Assembly: GCF_020595125.1 (NCBI RefSeq)
Contig: NZ_JACNMS010000001.1
Location: forward strand, 310,001 to 374,000
Reading direction: 5' to 3'
Source: Jeotgalibacillus aurantiacus
GTDB lineage: Bacteria > Bacillota > Bacilli > Bacillales > Jeotgalibacillaceae
Length of the DNA stretch: 64,000 nt
Shown one piece after another: positions 3,891 to 59,992 of the stretch. The notes beneath the pieces are model-generated. The model was not told the DNA's origin. It was given only the letters and a program-made list of their open reading frames with translations, and ran no database searches. A program made the position numbers and the translations under genes. The first letter of the stretch is position 1. Each line of letters starts with the position of its first letter.

Positions 3891-3952
3891 TCTTACACCT
3901 CTTCATCAAAAGTATCCCAGTCAATTTTTGAACTCTCCCTCTGTATTATGGT

Positions 3953-3982
3953 ACATTCAACACAAGTTGTACAGAATCCTCT
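3953..3982 (-). promoter_or_regulatory. sigma-H promoter of spo0F
   Basis: On the minus strand AGAGGATTC (3974-3982), a 12-base spacer and GTTGAATGT (3953-3961) closely fit the sigma-H consensus RNAGGAWWW-N11-12-RNNGAATWW. It lies 60-90 bp upstream of the spo0F ATG. B. subtilis spo0F is known to use a sigma-H promoter. Confidence 0.82.
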
Positions 3983-4012
3983 TAAAGATTTTTACAGAAT
4001 TTGTTTACAAGA

Positions 4013-4019
4013 TTCGACA
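4013..4019 (-). promoter_or_regulatory. 0A box (Spo0A-P binding site) upstream of spo0F
   Basis: The minus strand reads TGTCGAA, the exact 0A-box consensus, about 30 bp upstream of the sigma-H -35 element of spo0F. Spo0A-P both represses and activates spo0F through such boxes in B. subtilis. The region also lies just 5' of the divergent DUF2529 gene, so either gene could be affected. Confidence 0.7.
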
Positions 4020-4052
4020 AACCCTTTAGGGGTATGGAAAGGCTTGATATGG

Positions 4053-4571
4053 ATGTTAAAAATGTTTACAACACAGCTGACCGGCCTATTCGGGCGGCTG
4101 CATAGCAAGGAAGAAAACGAAATCGAAAACGCAGCACGCCTGCTCGCTCAGGCAAACGTCGGAGCAGGATCCATTTACGTTGCAGGCTTCGGTGAAATGG
4201 AAGGCGTCACAGCAGAAGCGCTCCGCGGCGAAGAACCTTTGACTGGCGCACGCGAACTTACCGGCGTTACTGAACTGACAACCGCTGACCGCGTACTGCT
4301 CGTAACCCGCCGCTCCACAGACCCGCAAGCGCTTAAGCTGGCGGCAGAACTCCAGTCACACGACATTCCTTTTGTGGTAATTGCAGGTAAAGTGAAGGAC
4401 GCTGAAAACGATCTGGCTGTCTCAGCCGATTCATTCCTGAACACCCAAACCGTCCGCGGCATGCTGCCCGACGAAACTGGCGGACGCTTCGGATTCCCAT
4501 CTCTGATGGCCGCACTGTATTTGTACCACGGCGTGAAGTTTGTGGTGGAAGAGATTTTGGAAGAATATTGA
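4053..4571 (+). CDS. ywjG: DUF2529 family protein (YwjG-like)
   Basis: A 172-residue cytoplasmic protein recognised as DUF2529 from its N terminus MLKMFTTQLTGLFGRL and its place between spo0F and pyrG. The fold looks SIS-like: a short alpha/beta protein with IYVAGFGEME near residue 45 and PFVVIAGKV, but no catalytic residues are assigned and the function is unknown. An upstream in-frame ATG at 3948 exists. The chosen ATG at 4053 follows a GGAAAGG site and matches the conserved family start. Divergent from spo0F and ended by a strong terminator. Confidence 0.85.
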   Translation: MLKMFTTQLTGLFGRLHSKEENEIENAARLLAQANVGAGSIYVAGFGEMEGVTAEALRGEEPLTGARELTGVTELTTADRVLLVTRRSTDPQALKLAAELQSHDIPFVVIAGKVKDAENDLAVSADSFLNTQTVRGMLPDETGGRFGFPSLMAALYLYHGVKFVVEEILEEY

Positions 4572-4688: not shown

Positions 4689-4873
4689 TTCCTTCACTAT
4701 CGACACTTATTCAGGCTTTCTAGAATTTAATCCCTTCTTTTGAAAAATTAATTCCTTCTTTCTAGAAAATGATTCCATCAAGCGCCCTCCAGATACAGTT
4801 AATTCCTTCATTCTCCTTTCGATTTCCTTCAAACGAGCTTACTTATTCCTTCTTTTCAAAATTTAATTCCATC
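4689..4873 (+). repeat. 21-bp periodic word array, AATTCCTTC family, 5+4 units
   Basis: Intergenic array with word starts (TTCCTTC or close variants) at 4689, 4710, 4731, 4752, 4773, then after a 30-bp step 4803, 4824, 4846 and 4867. Word spacing is therefore 21 x4, 30, 21, 22, 21. The second unit is the variant ATTCAGGC. The same order of variants recurs at 29301-29485 and, inverted, at 6567-6753. There is no open reading frame and stops occur in all frames. The wider gap 4602-5005 also holds GC-rich sequence at 4620-4685 that may be a decayed palindromic element. Confidence 0.85.
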
Positions 4874-5005
4874 ACTCCAACAACCATCCCACCTCCCTAA
4901 ATGCCCTTAACCAACAAGCCCTTCAGCTACATAACCCATTTTTCACCAAAATAAATAGCGCACCACCATCCAAACGGCTATAATAACCAAAAGGAGGTGA
5001 ATGTA

Positions 5006-5537: not shown

Positions 5538-6497
5538 ATGATCATGAAACCGCAGGCATTGCCCTGCCATATTCAAACACTGCAAATCATCGCAGACAGG
5601 CTGCCGCACTATCATCAGAAATTCGAGGACATTCAAAAACATCTTCGCAACTTAATCGCCGGCTATAAAGGTGAAGCCGGACTGGATTATAACCTCAGCT
5701 TCATCAAATCCCCTCACATCATCCTTCACAACCTTCGCCTTAAAGGACAAAACCACCACTTCCAAATGGACACGATCATCCTGTTCCAAAACGCAATCAT
5801 TATTTTAGAAACTAAAAACATCTCCGGCTCGCTCCAATTTAAAACTGATTTCCAGCAGGTTCTCCGCACGTTAAACGGGCAAACAGAAGCTTTCAAAGAC
5901 TTTCACCTGCAAATTAAAAGACAATCAGAACAGCTGACAGAGCTGATGAAACGCCATAAGCTCGGCGCACTACCCGTCATTCCATTCATCGTCATGGCAA
6001 ACTCCCGAACCATTATCCACGCCGAAACGCCACACATTTTGCGAAATGTCATCCCACCAGAAGCCATCGAAAGCGAAATTTATAAGGCTCTGCAAACGAT
6101 CCAGACTAAAAAGTTTGGTCAGGCACATATGAAAAAAGTGGCTGATGTGTTAATCAGTTTGCATGAGGAACTTGAGATTGACTGGTTCAAAAAATATTCA
6201 ATTGGTTTCAGTGAACTGCAGATGGGTGTGCAATGTCCGGGGTGTAGAAAGATTGGAATGGTCAAAAGCAGACGTGGATGGACTTGTGGGGATTGTCATC
6301 ATTTTTCCAGCAGCGTTCACCATGAGGCTTTGGAGCAGCTGTTTCAATTGAAAGGAGATAATGGAATAGTGAATAAGGACATTCGGCTGTTCTTTAGAAT
6401 TTCTGATGAGCAGGCAGCAAGGAGAATGGTGGAGAAGATGGCTGTAAGAAAAAGAGGGACAACTAAAGGGGTAAAATATTTTAAGCTTACTTTATAA
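5538..6497 (+). CDS. NERD domain protein with C-terminal zinc ribbon
   Basis: A 319-residue protein. Residues ~35-150 carry a NERD (nuclease-related) domain: GYKGEAGLDY, then MDTIILFQNAIIILETKN, which holds the D...(E/Q)xK nuclease-like core. Around 225-255 two CxxC pairs (CPGCRKIG and CGDC) form a zinc ribbon, followed by a basic C terminus. NERD proteins are suspected nucleases acting on DNA or RNA, but no substrate is known here. The ATG lies behind AAAAGGAGGAAATAAC, one base past the membrane-protein stop. NERD genes are often found on mobile or defence-related modules; that role is inferred, not shown. Confidence 0.82.
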   Translation: MIMKPQALPCHIQTLQIIADRLPHYHQKFEDIQKHLRNLIAGYKGEAGLDYNLSFIKSPHIILHNLRLKGQNHHFQMDTIILFQNAIIILETKNISGSLQFKTDFQQVLRTLNGQTEAFKDFHLQIKRQSEQLTELMKRHKLGALPVIPFIVMANSRTIIHAETPHILRNVIPPEAIESEIYKALQTIQTKKFGQAHMKKVADVLISLHEELEIDWFKKYSIGFSELQMGVQCPGCRKIGMVKSRRGWTCGDCHHFSSSVHHEALEQLFQLKGDNGIVNKDIRLFFRISDEQAARRMVEKMAVRKRGTTKGVKYFKLTL

Positions 6498-6566: not shown

Positions 6567-6753
6567 GAAGGAAACATTTTTTCAAAAGAGGGAATTGGCA
6601 TTCAGTTATGAAGGGATTACGTCAACAAATGAAGGAATTCCTGGTATCTGAAGACTGTTTGAGGGAATCTTTCTCCAGAAAGAGGGAATTGATTTTTCAA
6701 AAGAAGGAATTAAAATTTGAAAAGCCTGAATAAGTTCAATTAATGAAGGAATT
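6567..6753 (-). repeat. 21-bp periodic word array, AATTCCTTC family, inverted copy
   Basis: GAAGGAATT-type words on the plus strand start at 6567, 6588, 6610, 6631, then 6661, 6682, 6703, 6724 and 6745: spacing 21, 22, 21, 30, 21 x4. Read on the minus strand this is the same 5-30-4 layout and the same unit order as the array at 4689, including the variant CTTATTCAGGC as second unit. It lies between the convergent NERD and pyrG genes and precedes the pyrG terminator. No coding potential. Confidence 0.85.
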
Positions 6754-6849: not shown

Positions 6850-8466
<1,617 letters not shown>

Positions 8467-29300: not shown

Positions 29301-29485
29301 TTCCTTCATTCATGTGACTTATTCGGCCTTTTGAAAAATTAATTCCCTCGTTTCAAAAGTTATATCCTTCTTTCTGGAATTTAATTTCTTCATTAAGGCT
29401 TTGTCCGGTCCTAATTCCTTCACTAACCAACGGAATCCCTTCTTTTGAACGACCGGATTCCTTCACTGCCAGACACAATTCTCTC
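29301..29485 (+). repeat. 21-bp periodic word array, AATTCCTTC family, 5+4 units
   Basis: Word starts at 29301, 29322, 29343, 29364, 29385, then after 30 bp 29415, 29436, 29458 and 29479: spacing 21 x4, 30, 21, 22, 21, identical to the array at 4689. The second unit is TTATTCGGCC, the counterpart of TTATTCAGGC there. It lies between clsB and the peptidase E gene; nothing else is seen in that gap. Confidence 0.85.
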
Positions 29486-29545
29486 ACTCCCCCCTTCTCC
29501 CCAAATATGGTAACCTATTTAAAAACCTCAAGGAGTACAACCCAC

Positions 29546-30442: not shown

Positions 30443-30577
30443 CGACGTTTTCTCCTTTCGCTAGCAAGTATGCTTATCCTTATGGGTGAGGAAGCTTGTT
30501 AACTTTTATACGGATGAGGAGGGCAAAAGTTCCAGTTTTAAGCGAGTGTTTTTTCCGCTAGGGGCAACATGGAACGG

Positions 30578-30758
30578 TACAATTCCATTTTAGAACGATA
30601 CAATAACTCGGCGGAACGTGACAATTCTGTTCATGAACAATACAAAAATCGATGCTGCAAAGTCTAACGATACAAATAAATGTTCATTCGATTGAATACA
30701 TTTTGAAACAGTACAATTCTCAGCTGAATCGATACAATAACTAAACCAAACAGTACAT
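30578..30758 (-). repeat. 21-bp periodic word array, GATACAAT family
   Basis: Words of the form GATACAAT or GTACAATT place TACAA at 30578, 30599, 30620 (GACAA), 30641, then after 30 bp 30671, a degenerate unit near 30692, 30712, 30733 and 30754. This is the same 4-30-5 layout as the inverted AATTCCTTC arrays but with an unrelated word. It lies between the zinc-finger gene and the last gene of the cobalamin operon. No coding potential; no terminator for the cobalamin operon was recognised in 30443-30829. Confidence 0.8.
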
Positions 30759-41561: not shown

Positions 41562-41649
41562 CAGGGTTGCAGGAAATGCCGTTTGCTGCAAAGGAGTCAA
41601 ACGGGAGCCGCAACACCAACCTATCCTCGTAGGTATACATGGTGTAATG

Positions 41650-41815
41650 GAATCAAGGCAGGTCTCCTGGCTCATGACTATTGCACTTTGCCCCTTCCCA
41701 TAGCGTCTAGGCTACAGTGGTATTGGCAAATCGCAGTCATTTACAGTGGCGGGACCGCGCTGGAGTTGCACCAGCTTCCCTTTTAACTGATCATTGATGA
41801 TCAGCACCTTTATCC
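41650..41815 (-). promoter_or_regulatory. cobalamin (B12) riboswitch
   Basis: On the minus strand the B12 box AGCCAGGAGACCTGCC (41657-41672) is exact. GGTCCCGCCACTG and GGGAAGCTGGTGCAACTCCAG, further 5', are the other conserved parts. An AAGGTGC near 41810 marks the start of P1/P3. A terminator lies downstream, giving the usual off switch for uptake and salvage genes. Boundaries are approximate. Confidence 0.96.
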
Positions 41816-41914
41816 GTCCATATCGAAATGTTTTTCCAAGACCTATTATAGCATTGAAGGATTGTGAGATTGCAAGAAGTTTTTGGGAGAGGAAGGGCGG
41901 GCGGGGGGATTTGA

Positions 41915-42046
41915 CCACTTTTTAGGGTTATTCGACCACTCTTTTAGGTTATTTGACCACTCTTTCGGATGATTTAACCACTTTTTTCAATGATTCAACC
42001 ACTTTCTCCACTTATTTAACCACTCTCTCCGCAAAAGCTGTCACTT
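41915..42046 (+). repeat. 21-bp periodic word array, TTGACCACTCTTT family, 7 units
   Basis: CCACT (or close variants) starts at 41915, 41936, 41957, 41978, 41999, 42020 and 42041, every step exactly 21 bp. Units read roughly TTATTTGACCACTCTTT plus four variable bases. The array lies between the riboswitch promoter side of the cobalamin operon and the terminator of the dioxygenase gene. A related array is at 56399-56510. Confidence 0.9.
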
Positions 42047-42054
42047 TTGCGGAA

Positions 42055-43295: not shown

Positions 43296-43482
43296 GACGG
43301 AAATATATACTGGAGTGATTGAATTAAAGTCTGGAGTGAGGGAATCTGCATGCCCTATTGAAGGAATCTTTGGCGATTAAGAGGTGATTGATGGAGTGAT
43401 TTTTTCAAAAGAAGGAATTCCAAAATGGAACCATTGAATTAATTTTTGAAACGAATGAATAACCAACGGAAGTGATGGAATC
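43296..43482 (-). repeat. 21-bp periodic word array, AATTCCTTC family, inverted copy
   Basis: GAnnGAATT-type words start at 43296, 43317, 43338, 43360, then after 30 bp 43390, 43411, 43432, 43453 and 43474: spacing 21, 21, 22, 30, 21 x4. Same inverted 4-30-5 layout as 6567-6753; the unit at 43453 (GAATGAATAA) corresponds to the TTATTC variant. A second word, GGAGTGA, is interleaved. No coding potential. Confidence 0.8.
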
Positions 43483-56018: not shown

Positions 56019-56190
56019 GGAAAAGCGGAGGCGGGCGTTTAGCGGCGTATGCGGTGGACTGAAGCGATTAAGATAAAGGAAACACAGTGAACAAAGTGAG
56101 CTGATGTTGACTTATCGAAATGAGCTGAGGGAAGCGCACTAGCCGCTGCGAATCGGAGCTGGACATCGGGAAAAGCGGAGGCGGGCGTTT
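56019..56190 (-). repeat. diverged type B element with flanking 22-bp direct repeats
   Basis: The 22-bp sequence at 56019-56040 (GAAAAGCGGAGGCGGGCG core) is repeated exactly at 56169-56190. Between them GCGGCGTATGCGG...CCGCTGC and GGAGCTGGAC appear. GAAAAGCGGAGGCG and AGCTGGAC are also the reverse complement of the type B module at 14046, 14256 and 24410, so this is a distant copy on the other strand. Confidence 0.7.
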
Positions 56191-56193
56191 GTT

Positions 56194-56326
56194 CACTTCC
56201 AAGGGAAGTTTGGACACTTTTGGTCGATACTTGGTCACTTAAAGAGTATGTTTGGTCACTTAAAGAGTATGTTTGGTCACTTTCCAACTAAACTTGGACA
56301 CTTTATGCCTCAGCTTGGTCACTTTC
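56194..56326 (+). repeat. 21-bp periodic word array, TTGGTCACTT family, 7 units
   Basis: CACT within TTGGTCACTT (or GGACACTT) starts at 56194, 56215, 56236, 56257, 56278, 56299 and 56320, each step exactly 21 bp. Two neighbouring units are identical over the whole period. The array directly abuts the direct repeat at 56190. Confidence 0.9.
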
Positions 56327-56398
56327 GTGAAATTCAACGGCAAATCGGAACTGGGAATGAAAAACTGGTGATGCACAAGCAAGTCATTTTGCATTAGA

Positions 56399-56510
56399 CC
56401 ACTTTTCTTGATTATTTGACCACTTTTTATGGTTATTTGACTACTCTTTGAGGTTATTTGACCACTCTTTAAGGTTTTTTGACCACTCTTTGCTCTTATT
56501 TAACTACTCT
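56399..56510 (+). repeat. 21-bp periodic word array, TTGACCACTCTTT family, 6 units
   Basis: CCACT or CTACT starts at 56399, 56420, 56441, 56462, 56483 and 56504, always 21 bp apart. Same word as the array at 41915-42046 although 14 kb away. It ends about 50 bp before pbpG. The rest of 55970-56560 holds only the repeats listed here. Confidence 0.9.
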
Positions 56511-59750: not shown

Positions 59751-59778
59751 ATGATTCGGGCTAATGAAATGTGAATTT

Positions 59779-59961
59779 GCCGATAGCAAGGTACTTTGTG
59801 TCGACACCTCCATCTTTTCTGTTGATAGAGAGATCATTCATGTCGTTAAACAACTGAATAACATTCGTTTTGTTGTTAGCCGACGAAATTCTGTTAATGG
59901 GCATCGAAAATACGTCGATAGCAGCTCGCTTTCTGTTGATCGCGGCGAACTTTCTGTTGAT
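59779..59961 (-). repeat. 21-bp periodic word array, TCTGTTGAT family, 4+5 units
   Basis: GTTGAT/GTCGAT-type words start at 59779, 59800, 59821, 59842, then after 30 bp 59872, 59893, 59914, 59935 and 59956. All other steps are exactly 21 bp. The 4-30-5 layout equals that of the GATACAAT and inverted AATTCCTTC arrays, though the word is unrelated. Lies between the convergent ywhB and fruA genes. Confidence 0.85.
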
Positions 59962-59992
59962 CACTACCATCATTCCGTCCAGGAGCTCACCA

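What the first reader, a model, noticed from the sequence alone, without database searches (positions are those of the whole stretch)
4689..4873. Same 5-30-4 geometry in arrays with unrelated words
Word starts at 4689, 4710, 4731, 4752, 4773 // 4803, 4824, 4846, 4867 and at 29301...29385 // 29415, 29436, 29458, 29479 have identical spacing (21 x4, 30, 21, 22, 21). Inverted copies at 6567 and 43296 keep it. The GATACAAT array (30578) and the TCTGTTGAT array (59779) also show four words, a 30-bp step, five words. Layout conserved while the word is replaced throughout suggests that words change in concert and that position is what is selected.
Basis: seen in the sequence. Interest (0 to 1): 0.9.

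Follow-up and report, generated by a model that had tools for sequence, protein, structure and literature searches.

The report
Swappable-word, fixed-layout intergenic DNA arrays
Between ordinary genes of Bacillus-like bacteria lie many short DNA arrays whose repeated 'word' sits every 21 bp (two turns of the helix) in a strict 5-gap-4 layout; the layout stays while the word differs from family to family and, in related bacteria, has been replaced in nearly every unit at the same place, which points to an unknown DNA-binding system with changing specificity.

Summary
Confirmed, and larger than reported. The window is from a Jeotgalibacillus genome. In sampled stretches of it and of a sister species, 47 of 47 arrays built from three unrelated word families (ATTCCTTC, TTGTATCG, TATCRACA) have five words, a 30-bp step (once 31), four words, and nothing beyond; words and spacers are unrelated between families. 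A period-free scan finds almost only 20- and 21-bp periods here and in other Bacillaceae. A second class (about six words, no step) occurs too. Words are under purifying selection (4.0% substitutions against 10.0% in spacers). The arrays show no RNA structure and have no recurrent neighbour gene. Concerted word change was shown directly only for second-class arrays: at four orthologous intergenic sites of two Neobacillus strains the word is GTAC in 18 of 20 units of one and GTCC in nearly all units of the other, with homologous spacers. Best reading: helically phased landing arrays for an unidentified family of sequence-specific DNA-binding proteins whose specificity turns over. Binding factor and function are not identified. 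Not REP/RAYT, CRISPR-like or coding repeats; no matching description found in the open literature searched.

The parts
4689..4874 (+). 5-30-4 array, ATTCCTTC family, in the interval between the DUF2529 gene (3948-4571) and pyrG (6850-8466, convergent)
   Evidence: steps 21,21,21,21,30,21,22,21
6567..6752 (-). 5-30-4 array, ATTCCTTC family, inverted, between the NERD-domain gene (5538-6497) and pyrG
   Evidence: same steps on the - strand; orthologous array in the sister species
29301..29486 (+). 5-30-4 array, ATTCCTTC family
43296..43481 (-). 5-30-4 array, ATTCCTTC family, with the 22-bp step one gap earlier
30575..30758 (-).
   Evidence: one 20-bp step
59778..59962 (-).
41914..42047 (+). second-class array: seven words ACCACTTT/ACCACTCT at 21 bp, no 30-bp step
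56189..56322 (+). second-class array TTGGTCAC/TTGGACAC at 21 bp (the scan chain also took in a site at 56159, 30 bp upstream)
56392..56504 (+). second-class array TTTGACCAC at 21 bp, about 200 bp from the previous one

Best explanation
The arrays are double-stranded DNA landing sites, mostly beyond gene ends, for a protein assembly of fixed geometry. Each 8-bp word would be bound by one protomer of a sequence-specific DNA-binding protein; words sit two helical turns apart (21 bp; about three turns at the 30-bp step), so all protomers lie on one face of the DNA and can contact each other. In the 5-30-4 class the assembly would have nine protomers in two blocks; in the second class about six. 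Different word families would be read by different members (paralogs or alleles) of one protein family that share the assembly geometry, so that layout is constant and word is not. When a protein's specificity drifts, the words of its arrays follow by point mutation. Likely role: chromosome-architectural or insulating sites (supercoil absorption, domain boundary, silencing) between transcription units. Shown: geometry, period, selection on words, in-place word replacement in second-class arrays, intergenic position. Inferred: that a protein binds, one protomer per word, and the role.
For: Period almost only 20-21 bp among 12-45 tested, in several genera and with many words, as B-DNA phasing predicts and coding or RNA repeats do not. 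Strict 5-30-4 in 47 arrays of three families, outer positions near background. Families A, B and C do not share position-specific spacers, against a strong positive control within C. Words 26/648 = 4.0% substituted against spacers 83/827 = 10.0%, Fisher p = 8e-6; word positions 1, 2, 4, 7 and 8 change least, 5 and 6 most. No RNA folding signal, mean z -0.14 over 70 strands. Of 61 gene ends facing arrays, a terminator was detected before the array in 31 and inside it in 2; 19 of 50 arrays lie between convergent genes, against 23 of 123 intergenic regions of 200 bp or more. Second class in Neobacillus: one strain almost only GTCC, another mostly GTAC, N. novalis AGCC or AGAC with nearly every array uniform; orthologous sites carry the same leader and homologous spacers but a switched base in nearly every unit.
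Against: No binding protein identified; no recurrent gene family next to arrays. A diverged copy of one Neobacillus array, with its neighbouring hairpin, at a second locus shows that arrays also disperse, so part of the pattern may be element turnover. Position-specific units within the ATTCCTTC family suggest descent of copies from one ancestor. Terminator placement alone is weak (31/61 facing arrays; 37/87 at array-free control ends). The convergent-gene excess is modest and counts several arrays in one gap. No function tested.
Confidence: 0.5

Rival explanations
1. Dispersed, non-autonomous mobile elements: each word family is a lineage of elements whose internal sites are bound by its own transposase or recombinase, and the 5-30-4 layout is inherited from a common ancestor.
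For: Position-specific words and spacers shared by ATTCCTTC copies (half-against-half test). A copy of the TA87 pyrG-site array with its flanking hairpin at another locus. Tandemly duplicated arrays.
Against: No near-identical copies in the window's genome: best spacer identity between loci 0.62. No clean empty sites: the presence/absence cases look like internal deletion or decay. No adjacent transposase or recombinase family. The Y1 transposase (RAYT) family does not track arrays: absent from congener G007, which has arrays, and the two such genes of this genome have no array beside them. Does not explain in-place word switching with homologous spacers.
Confidence: 0.25
2. Selfish or neutral minisatellites: units multiply by slippage and recombination, and uniform words are left over from recent expansion.
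For: Unit deletions; long 20-bp tracts with up to 44 copies in other Bacillaceae.
Against: Homogenisation would make spacers as alike as words; spacers are diverse while words are uniform. The fixed nine-unit geometry and slower word change are not expected of neutral repeats.
Confidence: 0.1
3. RNA-level function: transcribed repeats with multiple seed or protein sites.
For: Several words are pyrimidine- or U-rich on one strand.
Against: No folding signal, terminators found between gene and array in about half the cases and almost never inside, B-DNA-like period, no Rfam match in the window's arrays.
Confidence: 0.07
4. Recognition of self-similarity rather than of a particular word (homology-directed DNA pairing with helical periodicity), so that any word works if repeated in phase.
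For: Word freedom together with strict phase.
Against: Words are shared among loci of one genome and constrained to a family set, which needs word-specific reading or common descent.
Confidence: 0.06

Closest known systems
REP/REPIN elements with RAYT transposases (e.g. PMC3116915, PMC3733652)
   Same: Short intergenic repeats in many copies, several sequence families, copies mostly without a transposase beside them.
   Different: REPs are palindromic; these are direct repeats at 21 bp in a fixed nine-unit layout without folding signal. RAYT presence does not track arrays.
Plasmid iterons and ParR/TubR-type centromere arrays (from own knowledge)
   Same: Direct repeats spaced about one or two helical turns, sometimes two blocks around a gap, bound cooperatively by one protein.
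   Different: Dispersed over the chromosome between ordinary genes, many word families, no rep or par gene recurrent among the neighbours checked.
BIME-type intergenic elements of E. coli (from own knowledge)
   Same: Lie between genes, often at 3' ends; an architectural role is plausible.
   Different: Palindromic REP units there; direct 21-bp arrays with changing words here.
TAACTGA heptamer repeats of Beggiatoaceae (PMC4679880)
   Same: Many sets of intergenic direct repeats of a short word.
   Different: One word in 2-6 copies per set; I saw no 21-bp spacing or fixed layout in the passages read; a translational role is proposed there.

Membership tests
REP/RAYT elements | palindromic (hairpin) repeat | tested here: not met
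   direct repeats; mean RNA fold z -0.14
REP/RAYT elements | cognate Y1 transposase gene flanked by the repeats | tested here: not met
   two Y1_Tnp genes in this genome lack arrays beside them; G007 has arrays and no Y1_Tnp match
CRISPR array | near-identical repeats of roughly 23-50 bp with unique spacers | tested here: not met
   8-bp degenerate words with 13-bp spacers, fixed nine units; cas genes were not searched for
Plasmid iterons | repeats adjacent to a rep gene or replication origin | tested here: not met
   neighbours are ordinary genes
Plasmid iterons / centromere arrays | cooperative binding of one protein per repeat | not testable with these tools
   needs a binding assay
Mobile element (MITE-like) | terminal inverted repeats, target-site duplication, clean empty sites | tested here: inconclusive
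   G000/G004 presence-absence cases look like deletion or decay; one diverged relocated copy in Neobacillus; the orthologous site in another strain holds a different repeat
Coding repeat | open frame through the repeats, period a multiple of 3 | tested here: not met
   20- and 22-bp steps inside arrays, intergenic position
Rfam RNA families | covariance model match at the gathering score | tested here: not met
   only a cobalamin riboswitch at 41640-41826 in the window

The most novel reading that the evidence does not exclude
A chromosome-wide address system: an unknown protein family assembles in a fixed five-plus-four (or six-unit) geometry on helically phased arrays; its DNA-reading part changes specificity quickly, several specificities coexist in one genome, and the matching words are rewritten unit by unit at many loci, while the layout (and, in Neobacillus, a leader like TTTCCAnnnAATGTCTAA) stays constant.
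Probability: 0.3. Interest if true: 0.92.

Novelty: categorically new. Interest (0 to 1): 0.8.

Why it matters
A DNA element in which geometry is conserved and sequence is exchangeable is unusual, and motif searches miss it by design. If the arrays are bound as proposed, some Bacillaceae genomes hold dozens to hundreds of sites of an unrecognised architectural or insulating system, and the GTAC/GTCC strain pair offers a natural experiment on how a DNA-binding protein and its genomic sites change together.

Tried and rejected
Viral contigs with two- or three-word matches: 13 multi-word chains, of which the eight inspected were seven inside reading frames and one in a simple T/G-rich tract. Y1 transposase/RAYT as partner: no correlation. 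Recurrent flanking gene family: none beyond the shared pyrG/DUF2529 site and a few common domains. RNA structure: none. Homology of spacers between word families: not position-specific. Neobacillus leader as a wider marker: 14 of 299 genomes of the order have a single match, near the level of the backwards control. A clean insertion site: not found. An early word-against-spacer comparison was biased, because words had been chosen in one of the two genomes, and was redone by geometry.

Full report
What was checked. The window is C1:310001-374000 of a 3.5-Mb genome.

Geometry. A motif-free chain scan of 173 intergenic regions in 464 kb of the genome found 53 chains at period 21 with one optional 30-bp step, none in shuffled sequence and 0-2 at periods 17, 19, 23, 25 and 31. 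Eleven of the 20 sampled stretches were picked for ATTCCTTC hits; from the window and the stretches picked without regard to hits I would guess 100-250 arrays per genome (inference). With the period left free between 12 and 45, arrays appear at 21 only in this genome, and at 20 or 21 (one at 25) in 79 other Bacillaceae loci. The 5-30-4 class holds three word families here. In 47 arrays of the two sister species (some of them orthologous pairs) words 1-9 match their family and positions 0 and 10 are near background; the central step is 30 in 46 and 31 in one. The ATTCCTTC family has, as a rule, one 22-bp step in the first or second gap after the 30-bp step. Arrays in other congeners show five words, a 29- or 30-bp step and four words, and include other words (GATCGATA in strain S-D1, TCGGGTCA in G007). 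Spacers are position-specific within the ATTCCTTC family but not shared by position between families. The families share layout, not sequence.

A second class, about six words at 21 bp without the step, is common here and in Neobacillus; several such arrays stand in pairs about 190-200 bp apart.

Selection. With positions set by geometry, nine orthologous 5-30-4 arrays of G000 and G004 differ at 4.0% of word bases, 10.0% of spacer bases (p = 8e-6) and 15.7% of the central gap; the ungapped flank figure of 23.7% is inflated by indels. Word changes mostly stay within the family's set (ATTCC[TAC]TC and the like).

Level of action. Arrays show no RNA folding signal (mean z -0.14). Of 61 gene ends facing arrays, 31 have a detected terminator before the array and 2 inside it; array-free control ends have one in 37 of 87, so this says only that terminators do not lie in arrays. 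Nineteen of 50 arrays lie between convergent genes, against 23 of 123 gaps of 200 bp or more (several arrays share a gap). Neighbour genes are ordinary.

Concerted word change. The same interval, identified by DUF2529, holds six-word arrays in Neobacillus, a 20-bp TATCRACC array in Rossellomorea and a 20-bp ATGAGCCT array in Bacillus methanolicus. In Neobacillus the element has a near-constant leader like TTTCCAnnnAATGTCTAA and a species- or strain-dependent word: GTCC in N. niacini MER TA 87, mostly GTAC in N. niacini AT2.8 (GTCC in some arrays), AGCC or AGAC in N. novalis, nearly every array being uniform. At four orthologous sites the AT2.8 arrays have GTAC in 18 of 20 units, while the TA87 arrays have GTCC throughout except two degenerate words (ATCC, TTCC) at site 4 (one further TA87 entry in that list, GTCCT, falls in a spacer). 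With words masked, the true pairing of sites scores best of all 24 pairings, which is the strongest result four sites allow; at site 3 the first spacers align almost base by base. So the words were rewritten in place rather than brought in by re-insertion. A third strain (OK048) has GTCC at two of these sites and GTAC at another, so two word types coexist and loci switch one by one. All this is for the second class; no switch at an orthologous 5-30-4 site was seen.

Mechanism. Helical phase, fixed unit number, selection on words and word exchange fit arrays bound by a cooperative protein whose family members differ in specificity. The protein is unknown and the role (architecture, insulation, silencing) is inferred. 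The main rival is a mobile-element family: dispersal occurred at least once, and the site orthologous to that copy in AT2.8 holds a different, palindromic repeat; but clean empty sites, recent copies in this genome and a partner gene were not found.

Novelty. Nine searches of the open-access library returned no description of such arrays; subscription papers are not covered. Membership tests for REP/RAYT, CRISPR, iterons, coding repeats and Rfam families fail or stay open as listed. I rate it categorically new on the strength of fixed geometry with exchangeable words; if the mobile-element rival is right, it would be a new variant of a known kind.

Noticed in passing
flanks of arrays, e.g. in L031, L034, L036: A separate inverted pair, TTTGaCGCG ... 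about 37 bp ... CGCGtCAAA, stands beside several arrays.
   Followed up: no
L467, L469 and L527: Neobacillus intergenic sites also hold another repeat with palindromic words like ATAAGCGGAGAAATTCCGCTTAT; an orthologous site can carry this instead of a 21-bp array.
   Followed up: partly
L026:17874-17986; L126, L127, L130: Some arrays alternate two words unit by unit (GGAC/GGTC; ATTTGTAG/ATTTGTTG; TTGTAAGA/TTGTATAA; GTAC/GAAC).
   Followed up: no
L136, L147, L151: Long 20-bp arrays (16, 44 and 20 copies) shortly downstream of pyrG in other Bacillaceae.
   Followed up: no
window 41640-41826, - strand: Cobalamin riboswitch (Rfam RF00174, 119.8 bits), close to a second-class array.
   Followed up: no
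window about 56021-56040 and 56171-56190: Repeat GGAAAAGCGGAGGCGGGCGTTT before the TTGGTCAC array; a similar stretch precedes such an array in L029.
   Followed up: no
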